Of a stretch of 64,000 bases of DNA, positions 1 through 10,719 are shown piece by piece. A program made the position numbers and the translations under genes. The notes below the pieces were generated by a model. That model had not been told where the DNA came from and searched no databases. It saw only the letters and a program-made list of their open reading frames with translations. Position 1 is the stretch's first letter; each line of letters opens with the position of its first letter. The stretch is from positions 1 to 64,000 of the forward strand of contig MCGT01000002.1 of NCBI GenBank assembly GCA_002104935.1. The letters run 5' to 3'. Source of the stretch: Hesseltinella vesiculosa (Eukaryota; Mucoromycota; Mucoromycetes; Mucorales; Cunninghamellaceae).

Positions 1-571
1 GATGGAGCTGGACAATGTTTTACGGCTACCAAAGGTCAACTGAAGTATATTGATGATGCCCGTCACTGGAAGCCCGGTTCCTTTATCGCAAAATACAGCA
101 AGAAGAACACGTTCATGCAAGTCTGGAAAAGCTCGATGAATGAGTCATTTGCATCATTGTCCTCTGAAATATTAGCCGAAGCCATGGGTAACTGCATCAA
201 AAGAGCAAGCGTCCTGCTCTACTGCGTTCCCCTTGTTCCACCGACCCATCCTCTTCCTCCACTCCACCTACCACCAAGATAAAAGAAGAGATCCTTGGGG
301 TTCACAAGAGCGGTGACATCGATCCTGGCAAGTGATTTCCAATCTGACGCCGGGTCCAGCACTGAGAAATGAGCTCTCCGGGTTATTCAAGACAGCGATG
401 AGTGAAGTGACCAATTACTGGCAAGGAATGACATTTTTAGTGCAAGCGACTTTGCTAAAATTTGCTACGACTCAGAGTCCTGATTGGTACAGTACAATGG
501 TAATGATGGATATCAGACCAGCTGATGGACTCACCTTATTTTTTGAGTCAGGTCTGAGTCGCCAGAAATGA
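1..571 (+). pseudogene. Decayed coding-like sequence upstream of the Fanzor gene
   Basis: Three overlapping stretches in different frames look protein-coding. Frame 1 is open from the left edge to a stop at 280-282. Frame 3 reads through about 205-333 and contains KIKEEILGVHKSGDIDPGK. Frame 2 reads from about 317 to the stop at 569-571. No splice arrangement I tried joins them cleanly, so one decayed or frameshifted gene seems likelier than three real ones. I do not recognise the protein. The fragment runs off the left edge. It could be an older transposon passenger gene or the end of a gene with introns I have misread. Confidence 0.35.
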
Positions 572-605
572 CGTTTTTTTTTGCGCTTCCACCCCTACTC
601 GTGCG

Positions 606-1110
606 TTGACGGCCGATTTATTCTCAATTGACCACATACAATACCTCTTCTTATCAACAACCTTCGGCAAGACCCAGGCGTCCACAACAGCCAACCACCC
701 AGTGTGGTCCTATCTGACGTGGATGTTACAACTCGTCGTCCTGACCTTGGCATCATGACCAGCGACCTGCGATCCATCTACAACAACAAGTTGGAAACCA
801 ACATTCAAAACCTTCTTTCTGGGAAATCACTCAAGACCATGCTACAATATCTGCTGTGCCTGCTCCTGTGACTTTGGCTTGACCCACCGAGCGAGAACAA
901 CGCCACCATGACTGCCGCCAAGGCTGCAAATATCGAGGTAAAGCTGCCCATCACCCTGCAGTCCAACAAGTAAATGGACCAATGCTTTTCCTTTTTTTAA
1001 AAAAAAAAAAATAGGCAGCCGAAGCGAACGAGGTACATGAGTTGAAGCAAAGTGGATTAGATAAAGTACGAGGAACTCAGATTGTATGGCCAAGGCAGGT
1101 TGGGATTTAC
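606..1110 (+). pseudogene. Second decayed coding-like stretch
   Basis: Two frames give protein-like text here: one with LFSIDHIQYLFLSTTFGK (from about 606) and another with SDLRSIYNNKLETNIQNLL (about 760-830). Both end in stops without a convincing joint. A pyrimidine/A-rich tract ending in AG near 1014 resembles an intron end. I see no domain. It probably belongs to the same decayed unit as the stretch to its left. Confidence 0.25.
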
Positions 1111-1223
1111 TATCACGTACGTGTATGGCAATTGCTTTAGCTCTTCAGAGTACTATCAATGCTACGCTCATTAAAATTATGTGTGCTTCTCTTTGGGAAC
1201 GAGTTTATTTTTTGATACTTTGT

Positions 1224-1581
1224 TTACGGATGATCTAGAAAATAAAAGGGTGAGGTTTATACAGGTATGTCATGCGTGATATTGGGTTTGGAAGTTACCT
1301 CGCAAATAAAGCAAGTATTCATCTGTGGGATGATTCCCCAAGGCATCAAGTAACATGTCCTGAGCAGCATCGTTCTTGTTATCGTTTTTTTCTAGCTCGA
1401 TGGCTAATATCCAAACGTGTGGTTCCATGGGGAAATTTTCAATCAACGACCGTAATACAAAGCGTTGTTGTTTGATAGGAAGATGGTGAAGGTTGTCAAG
1501 CATATCTCTGATGTGCTCTGCACCTGCAGAAATACCAGGAAGAGGTGGCCGAACAGATGGGTAGTTGGTTTGTAACATCAA
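1224..1581 (-). CDS. Small uncharacterised protein, two exons
   Basis: Exon 1 runs 1581-1299 and ends at a GTAACT donor. The intron (1298-1235, 64 nt) ends TTTTCTAG. Exon 2 (1234-1224) supplies only the last codons and a TAA. The joined length is a multiple of three and gives 97 residues. The middle of the protein (LIENFPMEPHVWILAIELEK and the helix after it) reads like a helical HAT/TPR-type repeat, but one repeat is too little to assign a family. Without splicing the frame ends nearby, so the last residues are uncertain. It lies opposite to and just upstream of the Fanzor gene, and could be an independent small gene or a fragment. Confidence 0.4.
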
Positions 1582-2127
1582 GAAAAGTTGTTTGAAGGAG
1601 AAAAAAAAAATGCAGGACCAGCGGAAGGAAAGGCGTCGCGCTTTTTTTTTTTCTCTTTTTTCGTTTTTCTTTTATTTCTTCATTGCTGCCTTATTATTGT
1701 ATTCATGGAACAACAACATCCACCGTTAGGAGCCAACAAAAAGATCATGCAATGCTGGTTTTTGATCCTTATCAATGTACCGACAGCAGCGCTGAATGAC
1801 TTGACACGTGATGAAGACCGCTTCGCTACAACTCATCTACTGACACGCCAGCAAGCCATGATCCTGCTAACGTGGGTGCGTAAGCACCGTGGTGGTAATA
1901 TGCAATGAGAGCACAACGTTGGCATTGGCATTGACTTGGTTTTTATAACTAGGATTACGCGTGTGCGAGGCTTGTGGCTCCCCGCATCATCAAACAAGCC
2001 GATCTCGACAATGTCCATTTTATATCCCTCCATCACATCGTTAGTGCATCTTCTTTTCAGCTTTTGCATGGCTATTTAACTTTTATTTTTGATAGCGATC
2101 GTTGCCACAACAAGCTCTGATGGTGAC

Positions 2128-5011
2128 ATGATGAACGAGATCAACGTTCTCCAGCGTCTTGGCGATGAGCAGTTGCGGGAGGCAGCACAAAATCAACACC
2201 CGCCTGAAACATGCCCAACCTGCGGCCTTCCTGGCCACTCACGATCATCCAACCCTGCCTGCCCATTCAGAGCGCTAAGCAAGAAGCAATTCATGTCATC
2301 ACGACTGCCTGCCTCTGAAGATTACACTCGCGTCCGTAGTTTTGATTCCATTGTCCGACCAACCTATCGCAACGTGCTGATCACCAACATCAAGGCCAAG
2401 TCCGATTATCTGCGTAGGACATTGACACGGCTGCAGCTTTTCCTGCTGGATTATGCCACCCATCACTCCGATCAAGTCCCGCCTTTTTTGTTTACACAGA
2501 ACGGCCTTTACTTGATGACTCAATTGACACGTGGTCACTTGAATGCATTCCTGGAACGGTCCGATGAACGTGTGCCGGGCACTGTGCTAACTCACTGGCA
2601 TGAATTCAACCAAGATTTGCTGAACGTCGCTACATATGACACCCCTGGTCATACCGCCGAGCTGTCCATGGCCTGTAAGCTTCAGGCTTCTGCAAACCGT
2701 AATCACATTACGGAGAACTTTGAAGGCCGAATCAAGAAGTTTGTGAAATTTCGCTTTGCTGTTGACGGTGAGGTAGGAAGCAGGCAGAAAAAAAAAGCGA
2801 CATGTCGAAATTTGGCTGACCTCCATACTTTTATTTTTCTCTTTGTAGGAACCTCCTTCCAGAATCCTCGGTATCATCAAGGATTACGTCTACCAAACCT
2901 TTGCCATGATTGCCCGAAATATGGAGCCCCTACCTGTGGAAATACCAGAACGACATAGATCTCTTACGGTGCTGGTTTTGAACGAACTATGGGCGATGAA
3001 ACCTCCACAGTTACCAACGATTACCCAAGAGACACTGCGTGCTGACCCAGGTCGGCATCTACCAATTTTACGAGCAATACTCGACGTGTATGATCATTAC
3101 CGTGCAACAATTGGTGATGAAAATGATATCGAAGTGCCCTCATTCACTCTCTTGCCGCTTCCTTCGTCCAAACCTCGGTTCGTGGACATCACACCTGAAA
3201 ACATCACACAACTCACAGGCTCTCGGCAATCACCAAACGACCAAGTGACAAGATTGCCACCATTTTTGCGCAAGCTACACATCTTTTGGCAAGTGTTTGC
3301 TTTTGAAAAGCTTGGATACCCCAGGTAAATGGATAGATGCAGGAGGGAAAATGTGGAAAATAAAACGAGCATGAGGTCTAACCTTTTTTTTTTTTTTTTT
3401 TTTTTAGCTTTGAATCACTCCGCCGGGCATGGATTCGTGGTCATTTTTTTTCTGGTGTGATGCGAACGGATGGAGTGCAACTGCACGTTGTCTTTTCCCG
3501 CCTACCCCATGGCCCTGATCCACCTGTCATTCACACACCCGACCTGGCCAACCAAGACGTTACTGGCTTCACTCTTTGTGGTATTGATCCTGGTCGGCGC
3601 GCAGTTATGACCACCTCCTTTGGGCGAGGCCATGAACCTCATGCGGTACGCCGAATGTCCATGAAAGAGTATTGCACCACCAGCAAGGAGTCGCATATTC
3701 AACGAGATATGAATCGTCGCAAGATCCAGCCCCTGCCATCGGTACCTGAGCAAGTGCATGCCTACGAGACTATGGCGGACATTGAGGCGAATACGCCCAT
3801 GACCAAAACCGCCGATCCCGTTGCCATTCGCCAGACCGTCCGACACAAACTCATATGCTCCGAGTCAACCTTTGCCTTTTACAACACAGATCATGCGATC
3901 TCCAACTTCGAATTAGTCAAAGGCAAGCAACGAGCAATTGCCACTGCTGCCAACTTCATCACCACTGGATCTCGCAAGTACACCCGACGCTGTCGAGACA
4001 AGCGAAAGACAAGGAAAAATCGGAAGCAACGAAAGCGACAGGCACAACGAAGAAGGCATGCTCGGTTGCTGCAAATCAAGGACGAGTACAGCAACACGAA
4101 GTCTCGAATGGATAATCTGGGGCGCTTGCGCGAACAACATGATGAGCTGATGGACCAGATGATGCGCATAACCTTGGACCAGCCACTTGGTGTGCACCCT
4201 GAAACTCGACCCGAAGAAGACCAGCACCGATTTGCTCGACAAATGAACCATGCACTAGATCAATATGGTACAGCGCATGACCTTGCTACAGCTGCCATAA
4301 ACAGCGAAATTGAAGCATTGGAGCAACATCTTCTGACACTCCAACAAAAATACCTCGACCCCCCTCAGCAACCAACGTAATACAAAAAATGGCCTATTTG
4401 CGTTATCTCATGTTCCTTTTCTATGCATAATCTAGCCGCATACGAGCCAGCAAGTTACCGTATCACGGCTCCCAAGAGACAGTGGATGGCCTGCCACTGA
4501 TCTCATTCGGTGATGCCATGGTTGGTCGAGATGCCCAACATTTTCGTGGGCACGCAGTGGGCAGAACGAACAACGTCAGACAGCACTTGATCGAACGACA
4601 GCACCGAGCGTTGTGCATGGTTGCCCACACCAACGAGTTCTGGACCAGCCAGGTAAGAACGTCAAAAAATGAGCGTGGTGGGCATTTCTAATTTGCTGAT
4701 CCAAACTAGAACTGCAGCACCTGTGGTGACCAACTGTCTCTCGTGCGCACGCAAGATCAGTCGTCTATCTTTGCTTTGAAGTTCTGCACCACTTGCCAAA
4801 CGGTGTGGGATCGAGACGTGTCCGCCGCTGCCAACATGTTCTGGATCCTCGACGAAACCATCAGCAACGGCGCTCGGCCGCTTGCGTTGACCCGCCCTCC
4901 TGAACACCACCAACCTCGCCCCACTCTCCCCGCCATTACCCTCTGGCATTCATGTAAGTGCTTGGGGCGTATAATATCTGAGCATCTCCCATACTTTTTT
5001 ATATTGTAGGA
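2128..5011 (+). CDS. Fanzor (TnpB-like RNA-guided nuclease), apparently intact
   Basis: Exons are 2128-2772, 2849-3324, 3408-4376, 4436-4652, 4710-4953 and 5010-5011. All introns are GT-AG and 56-83 nt, and the last one splits the TGA stop. The product is about 850 resid. The N-terminus has a CX2CX4HX7C knuckle (CPTCGLPGHSRSSNPACPF, resid 29-46). RuvC-I is CGIDPGRR (Asp near 434), RuvC-II is TNEFWTSQ (Glu near 764), and RuvC-III is DRDVSAAANM (Asp near 805). A finger CSTCG...CTTC (771-798) lies between RuvC-II and III, as in TnpB/Fanzor. A strongly Arg/Lys-rich tract near 563-600 may bind nucleic acid or act as a nuclear signal. About 330 resid separate RuvC-I from RuvC-II, longer than in compact TnpB. 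The start is the first in-frame ATG after an upstream stretch without one; an extra 5' exon cannot be excluded. Family knowledge: Fanzors are nuclear nucleases guided by an RNA encoded next to the gene. Activity here is inferred. Confidence 0.88.
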
Positions 5012-5328
5012 AAACGAAAAAAAAAAAACTACCATCAATAGATGGCAACGTCAGCGTTTTTTTTTTGTTGATGTTTGAAGTATATTTACAGGTAAGATTG
5101 CAAAAAAAAAAAGTCATATTCTCACCACTTTCCTCAATTTCTCATGTCTTTGCGACATTTGCAATCCTTTGGCATCTTCCCAATTTATCTTTATTGGTAA
5201 GTTGAATTTCCATTCGCCATCGCATGCTAAACTTACCCTTCACATTTCCATGTTTAATAGCTCTTTTTGCGACATTTCCATTCCTATCACTGCGACATTT
5301 TGTAAATAAAGTGTATTCATGCAGAGAA
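5012..5328 (+). other. Fanzor 3' flank; possible guide-RNA region
   Basis: No convincing gene is seen. The stretch is A/T-rich with several poly-A and poly-T runs. It holds three copies of TGCGACATTT (5151-5160, 5268-5277, 5291-5300). In TnpB and Fanzor systems the guide RNA is usually encoded at or just past the 3' end of the nuclease gene, so this is where it would be expected. No RNA fold was computed, and no element boundary or target-site duplication could be placed. Confidence 0.3.
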
Positions 5329-5633
5329 GCAGTGCTCCAGGGTCTCCAACCAATCAGAATCCAGTATTTGACAACTTCTTTGATTCTTGGAGGCAAACAT
5401 GACCTCATTCACATTCCAATGAAGAAGCAGAGCATGTTCTTGAGATAAACTGTTTAAAAAAAATAGCAGCATAGCGCTCGCAAGTATTCAACAAAAACAT
5501 GAATAATGAGGTGATGTGAGACCCATTTTGTGGGGGGGAGGTCTGTGCGTGTGTCTTGGCTTCAGAGCTGGCGTTACTGCAGATACAAAGTCTGCCTACA
5601 CCACTAAACAAAAAGGTTGCGAACCACTGCTAA
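5329..5633. mobile_element. Possible hAT-type non-autonomous remnant
   Basis: The right edge, read inward on the minus strand, begins CAGTGGTTCGCAACC, which looks like the terminal inverted repeat of hAT (Charlie-like) elements. The left edge begins CAGTGCTCC and reaches CCAACC after a short insertion, a partial match only. A C-run (GACCTCCCCCCC on the minus strand) near the right end also recalls these elements. No transposase and no clean 8-bp target duplication are visible. Confidence 0.3.
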
Positions 5634-5689
5634 GACATACCTGCATATTATCTGTGTCATACTGACGCGTGTAGCGAGGAGAGTGACCA

Positions 5690-6010
5690 TTTTCTGCAAC
5701 TCAAACTTCATATTGGCTGGTGTCTGCTGATGCTTTCCATGGCCACTTGCTCATCGCCACGAAGGCAGTGGGATTTGTCAGTCATAGCCATCGTCCTATC
5801 TGAACAATTTGTACTCGTTTGCAAAATCGTGCTGAATCCAATTTCGAAGAATCTGCACTTCTTTTTTCGAGTGGGGTTGATTCGCAGATGAAGAGAATTT
5901 TTAGCTGGGGATTCTGAGGAGTCAAAGCTAAATCGATGACAAGCTAACCGGGCGATCATCACCCATTGGTCTGACCTTTGCAGCAGTATCATAATTTATG
6001 ATTTTCTCAA
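5690..6010 (+). repeat. Decayed copy of dispersed repeat R1
   Basis: This stretch aligns by eye with the copies near 23.8-24.3 kb and 56.8-57.2 kb. The shared order is: a tract around TTTGTACTCGTTTGCAAAAT, a GATTCTGAGGAG block, then CGATCATCACCCATTGGTCTGA and TTTGCAGCAGTATCAT. It is more diverged than the right-hand copies and the palindromic centre is lost. No gene is seen in it. Confidence 0.5.
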
Positions 6011-6263
6011 TACATGCAAAAATGTACGCCAATAGGTAAGACCAGAAGTGCTGTGGAGCTTCACCTTTTTTTTCAAGATGAATGAAAAATGGCGAGCGGT
6101 GCAAGCGGCAAAAAAAAAAAACACCACCACAGAAAGAGTCATTTCCTTTTCTTCTCATTTTCATTTGCCCCCTTCCCCAATGATAAATCCTATAGTCAGC
6201 GTTTCAAGATCCATCCAGGCTGTGTTTTATGGTGTAGGACTGTTTGGGTAAAGAGGAATCAAC

Positions 6264-7523
6264 ATGGCCATAAGCTCGATGCAGACATTCACACCTCTTT
6301 TTCAAACTAGGTTTGCGGGCATGTTGCAAACGATTCAAATTCCCTCCATGATACTTGCACCCTTTTCGCCAGGGCTATTGGTCAAGATCAACTCATTCCT
6401 GATCGGAACGGTGTGGAACACTATGCAGGTAAAGAAGATCCCGCCCACATGTTAGACATGGGCTGATCCCTTTCCTTTTTGTGTACGTTTGGGTGCGGAT
6501 AGTATATATTTGAGGTAAAAAAAAACCTAGGGGTTTTTACTTTTTCTGGTAAATCCAATCTTACCCGGTCTTTCCCCTTGTAAAGTCACGGAAAAAAGGA
6601 CGGATCACCTTCTCGGGTGACAAGCTTCCTGACAGAGAATCGGCCTTGGTATTCAGCAACCACCGCTCCTGGACCGACCTTTATTTACTGCACTCGGTTG
6701 CCATTCGACAAAACATGCTGAGCAACTGCAAGGTTGGGAATAGAAAACGGTACCTGGCATGAAATGATGAAATGACTCACTTCTTCGCGCTCCTGTCTAT
6801 CTGTAGTACTTTGTCAAGGATTCTATTAAGTGGCTGCCTTTCTTTGGGTGGGGTATGTGGGTAAGGAAGACCGAAGCAACGACGAGGAAAGGATTCACTT
6901 TTTTTTATGGCTTAGCTGGCCGGGTTTATGTTTGTTCGACGCAACTGGTTGCAAGATCAAGAAAAAATCAACCGAACATTTGCTTCGATCAAGACGCTCA
7001 AAACCCCAGCATGGATCATCAATTACGTCGAAGGTTCACGTTTCACCCCTCAGAAATCGGCACAGGTAAACACCTTTTTGGGAAAGGTGCGAATGACCAT
7101 GGTAGCTAACCACCTCCTCCCTCCTTGCAGTGTCAAGCATTTGCACGTGACCGAGGCTATACCACGACCCAGCACGTACTGTTGCCCCGTACAAAAGGAT
7201 TCACGACTTGTGTCAATGAATTCCGCCACTCACATGTCAAATACGTCTACGACCTGACCATCGCCTATCGTCACAATGTGCCTGGAGCTGAATTCAATGA
7301 AGCTCCCACCATGGTCGAATTACACACAACCACCCTGTCTCCCGACTATCAATTCCATGTCCACGTTCGCCGCTTTGCCTTGGAAGATTTACCCCAGAAT
7401 GACGATGCCATTGGCGACTGGCTGCGTCAACGCTTTGTCGAAAAAGATCTTTTCTTAGAGCAGCTCCGCCAAGACTGGACGGATGCCTTGACGATCCCTG
7501 TACGAGAAGAACCCTGGTTTTGA
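6264..7523 (+). CDS. 1-acylglycerol-3-phosphate acyltransferase-like (LPLAT family)
   Basis: Exons are 6264-6428, 6503-6514, 6586-6732, 6807-6860, 6916-7065 and 7131-7523, giving 306 residues. The second exon is only 12 nt (YIFE), and skipping it would remove conserved-looking sequence before the catalytic motif. The acyltransferase motif NHRSWTD lies at residues 84-90, the block VKDSIKWLPFFGWGM at about 110-124, and EGSR at 165-168. This pattern fits the AGPAT3/4/5-LCLAT1 branch, which acylates lysophosphatidic acid or other lysophospholipids at ER-type membranes. The substrate cannot be told from sequence. A hydrophobic N-terminal segment (FSPGLLVKINSFLIG) may anchor it. Length is somewhat short for the branch, mostly at the C-terminus. 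Confidence 0.85.
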
Positions 7524-8736
7524 TTCAACTTCCTCCTCCAGCATCTCTACCAAGGAAGTCAAATCATTAAAAAGGTACCAAAAACGATGGAGAAGGGTGG
7601 CTGTCGGATCTCAAATCGGTCTGGAAAAGGCGAGTTGAGAAAGAGTGAGCCATTTTGTCAAGGAAGGGGTTGTCCATGAGAATATATTTATTACGTTCAA
7701 GAAAGTCTATCATTTCATGGACAATGTTGTAGCTGAGCGAGGAAGGGCTTTGTCACGGTGTAACTGCACTCATTTCTTACTGTTGGATTCGTTGGCATCC
7801 AGCATTTTTTTTTTTTTTGTAAAAAATAAAATAAAATATAAACAGGCACTTGCGACACGTCTCACATTTATTCAACCTTCATGATTTGATGTGCATTTGC
7901 CATTAGTCATGGTCCTCCTGCACTTGCTATCAGGAAGTGGAGCCGACTTGTGCACATTGCCACATTTACACCCATGGTTCTCTTCCCGCTTCACCATCAC
8001 TTGGCATGTGTCTACCTTCCTCTTCACTTTATCTGCCATTTATTTTCGTTATGTCGCTGTAAAAAAATTATGTGAAAAGCCTAAAAAAAATCAGGACTAA
8101 ACAACAAGGGTAGACTTGGGTACAAAAAATCAAGGGCGACTCTTCCTTTACTGTCTGCTTTATTCATGTATCCCAGGTTTCTGCCGTCATTCGACGGCCA
8201 GGTATTTCCCTGAGCTGTGAAAAAAAAAAAAAATACTTTGACCGTTGAACCAATCGGACGAGCTGCTAAATCAATTACAAGCGCGTGCGAAATGACTTTT
8301 AGATATGATTGCCAGCCTTCTGGCTCTTCCCAGGGTCGGTTCCCAGCCAATTTCTCGACAACTTTACGGCAAGGTGATGCTTCTGATTTCCCGGCAATTT
8401 TCGACTCAAGACAGCAGCGTCAACGCAACTTCGATCTCCGACGACGATCTCCCAGTCAGAAAGGGATGATGCAGACAATCCTTCCCACCCTTGACTGGGT
8501 GCCAGATCCAAGCCAATAACCCAAACTTCTTGGCTGAATCCTACCTGCGTATGTGGTTTGCACTCGATGAGTCAATGGCATCAAAAGGGCACACTCTCTA
8601 GATAAACCAGCATAAAACGACAGGAATGGCCGCATAAGGAGCAAATTGGGCCTACCTCTCTTTCCGCCTCTCACCTTTTTTTTTTCCTTTTTTTTTTAAC
8701 TGGGAAAAACATTGGATCCTTCTGTCCTAACGAACA
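7524..8736. other. Gap between acyltransferase and SEH1
   Basis: No complete gene is seen. A 56-codon open stretch at 7908-8075 (+) containing HGPPALAIRKWSRLVH reads like real protein. It follows a splice-acceptor-like CCATTAG but has no start or upstream partner, so it may be a relic. About 8280-8335 resembles the left part of dispersed repeat R1 (CGTGCGAAATGACTTTTAG, then GATTGCCAGCCTTC). The last 60 bases before SEH1 hold T-runs typical of 5' regions in this window. Confidence 0.4.
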
Positions 8737-10719
8737 ATGACGAGCCTTACTCGATTTGACACTGGCCATGAGGATCTTATCCATGGCGTGGCATACGACT
8801 ACTATGGAAAACGATTAGTGACGTGCTCATCCGACCAACGACTAAAAGTTTGGGACTTTACGGAAACACAAGACGCAGCTCTCTGGGAACTCAATGATGC
8901 TTGGAAAGGCCATGATGCATCCATCATGAAGGCTGTGTGGGCACCTGCTGAATATGGCCAAATCATAGCTAGCTGCTCGTTTGATAAATCCGTCAAGATT
9001 TGGGAAGAACAGCCTGTAGGTGAGTCCATGTCCTACTTCCTATTCTGTTTTTTTTTTTTCCAGCTTGACCATGTCTCCAATGGTGTATCCTCATTCGGCA
9101 TTTTTCTTTCTTAGAACCCAAGGGCTCCCAACGTCGATGGGCTGAACGATATCGGCTGGTAGAGTCCAAAGGGGCAGTCCTGGATATCGCGTTTTCTCCT
9201 GCTCAAGGCGCCTTGCGGCTGGTAAGAAGCGCCATAGAACAAATAAATCAATAGAGATGGTGTGCTCTGACAAAAAGGTACTAATGTTACTTGGATCGAT
9301 AGGCTACTTGCTCGGCTGATGGCGTGATCCGGATTTACGAAGCCATGGAGCCAACCAATCTCTCGCAGTGGTCGCAAATGGAGGAATTCAACATGGACAA
9401 GGACGGTGCGCCCGTCAGCATGGCGTCACCGAATGTCAATCAAATGGTGCCAACATCATCACTCCTTTCACAACAACAGCAATTACAACAGCAACAACAA
9501 GAATATCAGCAACAACTCCTGCAACAAATCCATCAGCAGCAACAAGGCGCGAACGCACAGACAACGGCCAGCAAACAACCTCAGCTGCCATCTCAACCGT
9601 CCTGGCCACGACCCACTGCCAGTAGCGATCCCCAGGATAGTACACCAGCCAACGTCACGTCCATGGCCACGCCGGCATCAGCCTACCTTTCGGGATTCCA
9701 TGGCCAAGATGGGCAAGGCGGCGGCAGTGTCACCACCACCATGGACGAAGCCGCACAGCAAGCAAGGCTCCATCTCGGCAACCTGAACAACTCATCCTCC
9801 AGCAGCAACCTGGCGTCTGTTGCTGCCGCCAATGCGGCTGCTCGCACACCAGGCTCCTCGTCCAGTGGCTCCAGCAGCTACACCGATACCACCCCTGGCA
9901 TGATACTTCCGAACGGTACGTTCAATATGACGTCGCTGGATCCCAGCTCCGCCTCGGTCGAAGCACTGTACCAGCAACATCACCAGCTCCAACAACAACA
10001 CTTGCAGCAGACGTCCCCGCTACCCCAACCTATGGACACAGAATGTGCCTATTGCTTGGACTGGTGTCCCAACCGCACCTCCACCCCCATGATGGTTGTC
10101 GGCACCGGCAAAATCTATGGCGCAAAAGTAAGCAAACAGCGTTAGCGCCAGGTTGATGCCAACCCCAGGCTTTCTCCTTAGATATTCAAACATGACGGGA
10201 ACAATCGATGGTATCCGGGCGAGGAGCTACTGGGCCATACGGATCAAGTCAACGATGTTAGCTGGGCACCAAGCATGGGCAGGTACGCAAACGAGCCATG
10301 GAGTGGGCGAAGATTAGAAGCTCATTTTTTTTTTTAAACAGGTCATATCAGTTGATTGCTACTGCCTGTCGCGACCACTATGTGCGTATTTACAGATTGA
10401 CTGACATCACAGCTCCGGTGCGCACGCCAGGCATGGTGCCCAAGCAAAAGGCTGGCCGGTCATTCAAAATGACGCTAGTAGCCGCATTCAAGCAACACGA
10501 AGCCGAGGTACGAGAAAAGGACAAGAGAAGGACAGCTCGGCTCACCTTGTTTCTTTTTTTCTTGACCCGACCCTGTAGGTCTGGCGTGTGGAGTGGAACA
10601 TCACAGGCACAATCCTGTCGTCCAGCGGCGCTGACAGGACGGTTCGGTTATGGCGTGCTGGCTTTGATGGCGAATGGCGTCAGATCGCCGTGATCCACAC
10701 CGACCAAAAGCAATCCTAG
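8737..10719 (+). CDS. SEH1: Nucleoporin SEH1, WD40 protein with Gln-rich insertion
   Basis: Exons are 8737-9019, 9115-9221, 9303-10127, 10182-10282, 10342-10507 and 10579-10719, giving 540 residues. The start FDTGHEDLIHGVAYDYYG and following CSSDQRLKVWDF match SEH1. Later blades include ATCSADGVIRIYEA, HTDQVNDVSWAP and SSSGADRTVRLWRAG. SEH1 is part of the Y-shaped (Nup84/Nup107) nuclear-pore complex and of the SEACIT/SEACAT complex that regulates TORC1 at the vacuole or lysosome. Typical SEH1 is about 350 residues. The excess is a low-complexity insertion, about residues 166-375, rich in Gln, Ser, Thr and Pro, within the third exon between two propeller blades. It keeps frame, so it is probably translated. 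Confidence 0.93.

What the first reader, a model, noticed from the sequence alone, without database searches (positions are those of the whole stretch)
2128..5011. Apparently intact Fanzor gene with full RuvC triad in a fungal genome
Seen: five coding exons plus a split stop join in frame to about 850 residues, with CGIDPGRR, TNEFWTSQ and DRDVSAAANM supplying Asp-Glu-Asp, and a CXXC...CXXC finger between the last two. Known: this is the TnpB/Fanzor layout, a eukaryotic RNA-guided DNA nuclease. Inference: with no stop or frameshift, the gene could still be functional. The N-terminal CX2CX4HX7C knuckle and the 330-residue RuvC-I to RuvC-II spacing are distinctive.
Basis: partly seen in the sequence, partly recalled or inferred. 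Interest (0 to 1): 0.95.

Follow-up and report, generated by a model that had tools for sequence, protein, structure and literature searches.

The report
Large fungal Fanzor transposon, probable guide RNA
This is an intact gene for a Fanzor, the eukaryotic relative of CRISPR nucleases, in the mould Hesseltinella vesiculosa; it sits in a jumping element with several recent copies, and just behind the gene lies a conserved folded RNA that is probably its guide scaffold.

Summary
The exons and motifs are real and the gene is a Fanzor1-type nuclease. Host: Hesseltinella vesiculosa (P0001, 99% identical). The gene starts at 1705, not 2128: 8 coding exons, 7 introns, 953 residues, two tandem CX2CX4HX7C knuckles. 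Four copies are 98-99% identical; three, including this one, are open throughout. A 61%-identical paralogue keeps all exons and the split stop; synonymous change is saturated, replacement change low. The carrier has inverted-repeat ends and probably a TA duplication; 13 of 13 left ends examined are preceded by TT, predicting a TTTA TAM. Just after the stop, two hairpins are kept by compensatory changes across three families: a candidate omega-RNA. A divergent 96-residue gene accompanies 15 of the 17 best-scoring copies. Relatives found by protein search come only from this species. Structure prediction was uninformative (mean pLDDT 44). Verdict: a probably functional Fanzor1, an unusual variant of a known kind. 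RNA, guide, TAM and cleavage are inferred, not shown.

The parts
1..5315 (+). Fanzor-bearing inverted-repeat element; its left end is cut off because the window starts at the first base of contig C12
   Evidence: Aligned with copies L009, L010, L011; right end; window = G000:C12:1-64000
5..916 (+). relic of the N-terminal part of another Fanzor-like gene (Fz-C)
   Evidence: 84% and 89% DNA identity to the complete Fz-C element L037 over window 5-520 and 554-916; frames broken in the ORF list
1299..1578 (-). companion gene, exon 1 (96-residue protein)
1224..1234 (-). companion gene, exon 2 with stop (inferred from matching splice sites in window and L035)
1705..1894 (+). Fanzor coding exon 1, true N-terminus
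1953..2039 (+). Fanzor coding exon 2, first zinc knuckle (about 1964-2014)
2096..2772 (+). Fanzor coding exon 3, second zinc knuckle (about 2212-2262)
2849..3324 (+). Fanzor coding exon 4
3408..4376 (+). Fanzor coding exon 5; RuvC-I Asp codon (DPG) at 3586-3588
3979..4490 (+). RuvC insertion of about 150 residues (includes the intron 4377-4435), Arg-rich then helical
4436..4652 (+). Fanzor coding exon 6; RuvC-II Glu codon at 4635-4637
4710..4953 (+). Fanzor coding exon 7; C4 finger about 4713-4796; RuvC-III Asp (RD) codon about 4815-4817
5010..5011 (+). last two bases of the split stop
5029..5096 (+). two conserved hairpins (5032-5045; arms 5048-5055 with 5067-5074) and TTGAAGT..TACAGGTAAG: candidate omega-RNA scaffold
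5092..5260 (+). possible 3'-UTR intron (donors at 5092 or 5197, acceptor ending 5260); inference
   Evidence: sequence; GGTAAG and TAG invariant in 10 aligned right ends
5186..5315 (+). right-end module with two TGCGACAT repeats and AATAAAGTGTA
5316..5335 (+). host flank that would serve as guide if the omega-RNA reads out of the element; inference
   Evidence: by analogy with SpuFz1

Best explanation
A Fanzor1-type RNA-guided DNA nuclease encoded by a terminal-inverted-repeat transposon, probably with a TA target duplication. The 953-residue protein has an N-terminal pair of zinc knuckles, a REC/WED-like region and a RuvC domain with a D-E-D triad, a large insertion and a C4 finger. Inferred working: the transcript runs on into the 3' flank; the two hairpins behind the stop plus the right inverted repeat form the omega-RNA scaffold; the guide is the host sequence just outside the right end; the nuclease cuts DNA that carries TTTA followed by that sequence, i.e. 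the unoccupied insertion site, and so helps the element persist or spread. Shown here: gene structure, motifs, selection, multi-copy element, its ends, hairpins with compensatory changes, TT before TA at all 13 left ends examined. Inferred: transcription, RNA binding, guide, TAM, cleavage, benefit to the element, and what moves it.
For: PF07282 above cut-off; DPG and the shifted Glu; profile hits in the PDB led by TnpB-like L79 at E 3.3e-4, with LaTranC, GtFz1, a TnpB and SpuFz1 below significance; intact paralogue under purifying selection; copies and ends; left flanks TT|TA 13 of 13 against 10.8% background; hairpins; the same layout of gene, RNA, repeat and TAM is published for SpuFz1.
Against: No RNA or biochemical data. 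The AlphaFold2 model is poor and does not show a RuvC fold. The sequence alone finds no Fanzor in the PDB, and profile A1 only LaTranC at E 0.04. Published search patterns for Fanzor are missed because of the spacing. Folding energy of the whole 304-base 3' region is only weakly unusual (z -1.83), that of the last 126 bases not at all. The hairpin support comes from three families, so few independent events. No empty site was seen and no transposase was searched for. Some left flanks resemble each other (L040 and L059), so the 13 are not all independent.
Confidence: 0.8

Rival explanations
1. A Fanzor by descent whose window copy is a dying passenger: mobile until recently, no longer expressed or needed.
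For: GTTA donor at intron 2 where three sisters have GTAA; one sister (L011) has a stop and the L012-L017 group is degenerate or cut; dN/dS among the four close copies is only moderately below 1 (0.23-0.58, few changes).
Against: The window copy is open over all 953 codons; saturated pS against pN 0.262 to the paralogue shows long-term constraint.
Confidence: 0.3
2. The two hairpins are not an omega-RNA but an mRNA 3'-UTR element (stability, translation or 3' end formation) or a transposase-binding feature, and the omega-RNA lies only in the last 60-130 bases.
For: They lie about 240 bases upstream of the right end, whereas the SpuFz1 RNA of 88-90 nt directly spans the right repeat; the stretch between is poorly conserved.
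Against: Known omega-RNAs vary from 75 to 150 nt and start near the stop; a removable intron would bring hairpins and repeat together (inference); the right-end module alone shows no folding signal.
Confidence: 0.3
3. TT before TA at the left ends is part of the element or a transposase target preference, not a TAM.
For: 13 of 13 left ends have it; nothing here tests cleavage.
Against: Right ends show no matching AA rule after GTGTA, so it is not part of a symmetric repeat; the same one-sided dinucleotide in S. punctatus coincides with the TAM.
Confidence: 0.35
4. A host-domesticated single gene rather than a mobile element.
For: Long-term purifying selection.
Against: Four copies 98-99% identical at different places with different right flanks and element ends shared with other families.
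Confidence: 0.03

Closest known systems
SpuFz1 elements of Spizellomyces punctatus (Saito et al. 2023, PMC10432273; passages and section 7 read)
   Same: Fanzor1 gene inside inverted repeats, many copies, no transposase described inside, RNA between stop and right end, one-sided dinucleotide before the left repeat
   Different: Here 953 residues, 7 introns, 330 residues between DPG and Glu (158 between D383 and E541 in SpuFz1), N-terminal double knuckle, 304 bases between stop and right end instead of about 80, TT instead of CA, a companion gene
PpFz1 of Parasitella parasitica (Xu et al. 2024, PMC11423790; section 4 and passages read)
   Same: Mucoralean Fanzor1 with an extra domain inserted in RuvC
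   Different: PpFz1's insertion is about 100 residues of three helices, three sheets and a loop that binds cyclophilin; here about 150 residues, Arg-rich, predicted as two long helices in a poor model; relationship untested
Fanzor1 elements of Mucor, Rhizopus and Phycomyces and Fanzor-only Mariner-like elements (Bao and Jurka 2013, PMC3627910; passages read)
   Same: Fanzor1 in mucoralean DNA transposons, chimeric elements, elements with Fanzor only, and in some (non-fungal) Mariner cases TA duplications
   Different: Their mucoralean examples include MuDR-like elements with 9-bp duplications; here probably TA. The spacer of 332 between Asp and [TS][TS] is outside their 125-275

Membership tests
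Fanzor/TnpB family | C4 finger (PF07282) between RuvC-II and RuvC-III | tested here: met
   E 1.4e-7, 32 bits, cut-off 26.3
Fanzor/TnpB family | D-E-D catalytic residues in order, open frame | tested here: met
   invariant in the three aligned families
Fanzor (against other TnpB) | DPG at RuvC-I and Glu six residues before the first Cys of the finger | tested here: met
Fanzor/TnpB family | Published motif D-X(125,275)-[TS][TS]-X-X-C4-X(5,50)-RD | tested here: not met
   everything but the first spacer fits; that spacer is 332 (motif, counted on the sequence). A variation of spacing, not of the conserved residues
Fanzor (search pattern of Yoon et al.) | DPG-X(120,160)-E-X6-CxxC-X(12,18)-CxxC-X(4,8)-D | tested here: not met
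   spacings 330 and 20; another Fanzor of this genome, L056, also fails it
Fanzor/TnpB family | RuvC/TnpB fold | tested here: inconclusive
   AlphaFold2 mean pLDDT 44, pTM 0.24, nine rows; profile A2 hits L79 at E 3.3e-4
Fanzor1 | omega-RNA from the 3' flank with guide in the host flank | tested here: inconclusive
   hairpins with covariation; no RNA data
Fanzor1 | RNA-guided DNA cleavage with a TAM | not testable with these tools
   TTTA predicted only
Fanzor1 | carried by a eukaryotic DNA transposon | tested here: met
   copies and inverted-repeat ends
Tc1/mariner-type carrier | TA duplication and inverted repeats | tested here: inconclusive
   TA at both ends fits; no empty site seen
Tc1/mariner-type carrier | mariner transposase with these ends | not tested
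   no transposase family was searched

The most novel reading that the evidence does not exclude
A Fanzor system that makes its guide RNA through host splicing and polyadenylation: the two-hairpin scaffold is spliced (donor 5092, acceptor 5260) onto the right inverted repeat, and an AATAAA a few bases before the element's end places cleavage and polyadenylation in the flank, so that the transcript captures a guide-length piece of host DNA. The co-conserved 96-residue protein, weakly like the polyadenylation factor Suf/CstF-77 (E 0.0036, below cut-off), helps to set that 3' end. Against it: several right-end types and copy L009 lack AATAAA.
Probability: 0.08. Interest if true: 0.85.

Novelty: new variant of a known kind. 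Interest (0 to 1): 0.5.

Why it matters
It adds a divergent, very large Fanzor1 group, seen so far in one fungus, with a double zinc knuckle, a large RuvC insertion, a companion gene and a scaffold RNA supported by covariation. It gives testable predictions (TAM TTTA, guide in the right flank, spliced scaffold) for intron-rich Fanzors, whose guide-RNA making and use to the transposon remain open questions.

Tried and rejected
The structure prediction came after many polls and is poor, so no fold search was run on it; only parts of the helical insertion and of some N-terminal helices score above 70. Rfam: no match at gathering thresholds in window 1-6500. AATAAA as a universal right-end feature: rejected. 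One search had demanded it; a pattern without it gave 29 matches, among them right-end types without AATAAA. I first took window 32-1392 for an insertion absent from L010 and from the L012-L017 copies that span it; L035 shares part of it in the same order, so a deletion in those copies is likelier. The last 126 bases have no folding signal. For L044 exon 1 could not be modelled (stop in frame), so only its later exons were used, without residues at some junctions. L012-L017 were left out of the selection tests and the RNA alignment because they are degenerate or cut and, as seen in L015, their 3' part runs into another Fanzor. L052 and L053, fetched as possible relatives, lacked the hairpin motif and were dropped; L054 was kept apart as a test sequence.

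Full report
OBSERVATION. The exon model of the finding reproduces exactly: 850 codons and a split stop, junctions GT..AG, with the D-E-D motifs and the C4 finger in place. Pfam finds PF07282 at E 1.4e-7, above its cut-off. The host is Hesseltinella vesiculosa: the first protein search gave two proteins, both of this species, and P0001 is 99% identical and annotated as hypothetical. The window is the first 64 kb of contig C12 of a 27-Mb assembly, so the left end of the element is cut off.

THE GENE IS LARGER. P0002, an annotated protein from another copy, carries upstream sequence that the window also encodes. The full model starts at 1705 and has exons 1705-1894, 1953-2039, 2096-2772, 2849-3324, 3408-4376, 4436-4652, 4710-4953 and 5010-5011, 953 residues. 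The paralogue L035 (C33) has the same eight pieces and the same T|GA split stop, 954 residues, 61% identical (578 of 951 aligned positions). The added N-terminus holds a second CX2CX4HX7C knuckle. Positions identical in the window protein, L035 and P0003: first knuckle block 15 of 25, second 13 of 25, REC/WED stretch 133 of 348, insertion 26 of 151, RuvC-II to finger 22 of 39; block borders are approximate.

COPIES AND SELECTION. The exon-3408 query gives 87 matches in the genome (124 of 143 candidates scored, so a lower bound). Three further copies are 98.1-98.9% identical to the window over kilobases (L009, L010, L011). Window, L009 and L010 are open throughout; L011 has one stop; the L012-L017 group carries frameshifts or deletions or is cut by a contig end. 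Among the four close copies dN/dS is 0.23-0.58 on 9-17 synonymous changes per pair. Window against L035: pS 0.786 (saturated), pN 0.262 over 951 codons; of five blocks the first 100 residues have the lowest pN, 0.211. PF07282 alone gives 46 matches in the genome at E up to 0.001, so the genome is rich in Fanzors. Three searches of 5.8 billion proteins gave 2, 7 and 4 proteins, all named H. vesiculosa; the tool sees only relatives that share short exact words, and one search scored only the candidates sharing most words, so the group may be wider.

FAMILY. DPG and the shifted Glu are the Fanzor signature of Yoon et al. (PMC10711439, passages); both are met. The spacings 330 and 20 fall outside their search pattern, and the first spacer (332) falls outside the motif of Bao and Jurka (PMC3627910, passages). 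Another Fanzor of this genome, L056, has 260 between DPG and Glu, so long spacing is not peculiar to this group. Against solved structures the single sequence finds no TnpB or Fanzor, profile A1 finds LaTranC at E 0.04, and profile A2, which includes other Fanzor families of this genome, finds TnpB-like L79 at 3.3e-4, then LaTranC (0.022), G. theta Fanzor1 (0.05), a TnpB (0.21) and S. punctatus Fanzor1 (0.31) among 16 rows, the rest unrelated. The extra length is a stretch of about 150 residues, Arg-rich at its start, between the GSRKY block and RuvC-II. AlphaFold2 with nine rows is poor (mean pLDDT 44, pTM 0.24); its better part is two long helices, 564-631 and 643-690 of P0001, mostly in this insertion. 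PpFz1 of Parasitella has a RuvC insertion of about 100 residues that binds cyclophilin (PMC11423790, section 4); whether the two are related is untested.

THE CARRIER. L010 is complete: C35:50703-55187, 4,485 bp, from TACAGTGTTTCCACTTTC to AATAAAGTGTA. The ends share TACA and ATGTCRCA in inverted orientation. 17 right ends match one pattern exactly, reversed control 0; a looser pattern gives 29, control 0. The same ends bound another Fanzor-like gene, Fz-C (L037); six Fz-C elements have a left end and a right end 4.45-4.47 kb apart, while one further left end (C18, two mismatches) and one further right end of that type (C50) were not paired. All 13 left ends retrieved (6, 7) are preceded by TT; TTTA makes up 520 of 4,806 TA sites (10.8%) in the window. 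At least two of the 13 left flanks (L040, L059) resemble each other, so the sites are not all independent. Right flanks vary. In S. punctatus a conserved CA precedes the left repeat and the TAM is CATA (the text of PMC11423790 prints the two TAMs in the other order, its section 6 gives TTAA to GtFz1). By analogy I predict TTTA. Fz-A elements carry a relic of an Fz-C gene (window 5-916), and L015 is followed by a further Fanzor gene, so these elements are chimeric. The last 133 bases of L035 are 97% identical to the window although its coding synonymous sites are saturated, and window, L010 and L035 agree here against L009 and L011, which suggests exchange of right-end modules rather than constraint alone.

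THE RNA. Between stop and right end (304 bases) the alignment of three families shows two hairpins directly behind the stop. Single-sequence tests of this stretch: window z -2.90 (p 0.008), L035 -2.04 (0.035), L048 -2.21 (0.027), combined p 6e-4. On 12 sequences (10 distinct, three families) 88.5% of cells pair (0 of 500 shuffles reach it), the covariation score is 0.487 against 0.213 shuffled (0 of 500) and at most 0.236 when slid, and 7 of 13 pairs have double changes, which 41 of 500 shuffles also reach; the number of further pair types, 9, was below the shuffled mean of 12.1. RNAalifold finds 12 of the 13 pairs, all but the innermost of hairpin 1. The single-sequence fold of L035 prefers another arrangement around hairpin 1. 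A covariance model over 56 held sources matches the 12 training sequences, five further windows on the same copies, and the decayed copy L054, not in training, at 54 bits; the next best is 22.7 bits, E 0.014, on the other strand of the same place. The hairpins of L054 differ at two stem positions, both keeping a pair (read by eye). In SpuFz1 the omega-RNA lies between stop and right repeat and extends 14-15 nt past it. Downstream, GGTAAG and a TAG are invariant in ten aligned right ends, which would allow an intron to be spliced out between scaffold and right repeat; this is inference.

COMPANION GENE. A 96-residue protein on the other strand (1578-1299, 1234-1224) is conserved in L035 (52% over 105 residues) and L044 (43% over 72). 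Window against L035 over 78 codons: pS 0.642, pN 0.300. It has 35 matches in the genome. Of the 17 best Fanzor exon matches (E up to 1.3e-59), 15 have it upstream on the opposite strand, 1.8-2.0 kb away; the other two (C59:58282, C32:1601) lie too close to a contig end to tell (pairing read by eye). In L010 and the L012-L017 copies it is truncated. Pfam: Suf at E 0.0036, below cut-off. An accessory of the RNP or of 3' end formation is a guess.

LITERATURE. Fanzor with Mucoromycota: 0 papers. Fanzor with zinc knuckle: 0. Hesseltinella vesiculosa with transpos-: 4 papers, none on Fanzor by title (listing only). Any two of Fanzor, Mucorales, Hesseltinella, Rhizopus: 1,557 papers, 12 listed, of which only PMC11423790 holds Fanzor. 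The library is open-licence only, so this does not prove absence; mucoralean Fanzors as such are published.

VERDICT. Real, correctly named, more complete and more interesting in detail than reported, but a member of a known class of nucleases.

Noticed in passing
L037, L057-L062 (G000 C7, C1, C2, C7, C33, C34, C85): Six complete 4.45-4.47-kb elements with the same ends carry another Fanzor-like gene (Fz-C) with GTDYG in place of DPG and NEARTS before a Cys pair; Pfam finds no TnpB domain in the pieces tested. Possibly a further divergent Fanzor group.
   Followed up: partly
L015 5342-9577: A further Fanzor-like gene (GVDPGH..NEAYTSQ) follows a truncated copy of the window's gene inside one element: a two-Fanzor chimera.
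   Followed up: partly
window 5186-5315 and L035 200-332: Right-end modules are 97% identical between elements whose coding synonymous sites are saturated: end swapping between families.
   Followed up: partly
window 5197-5240: GGTAAGTT and AACTTACC in the right-end module are perfectly complementary; the second half resembles the 5' end of U1 snRNA (recalled). A hairpin that could hide a splice donor, or chance.
   Followed up: no
L015 1-1358: About four tandem copies of a unit of roughly 337 bp directly left of the element.
   Followed up: no
L011 8830-9006 and L016 4495-4671: A 97% identical stretch lies next to the left part of the element in both loci, unexplained; L009 and L011 lack the usual left end.
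   Followed up: no
L035 5426-6061 and L056 632-1882: Another Fanzor family (WGIDPGVTD) lies upstream of the paralogue in L035 and also at C5; DPG to Glu is 260 residues in L056.
   Followed up: partly
window 7110-7523 and 8731-9114: Genes right of the element look ordinary: an acyltransferase (PF16076) and a WD40 protein (PF00400).
   Followed up: partly
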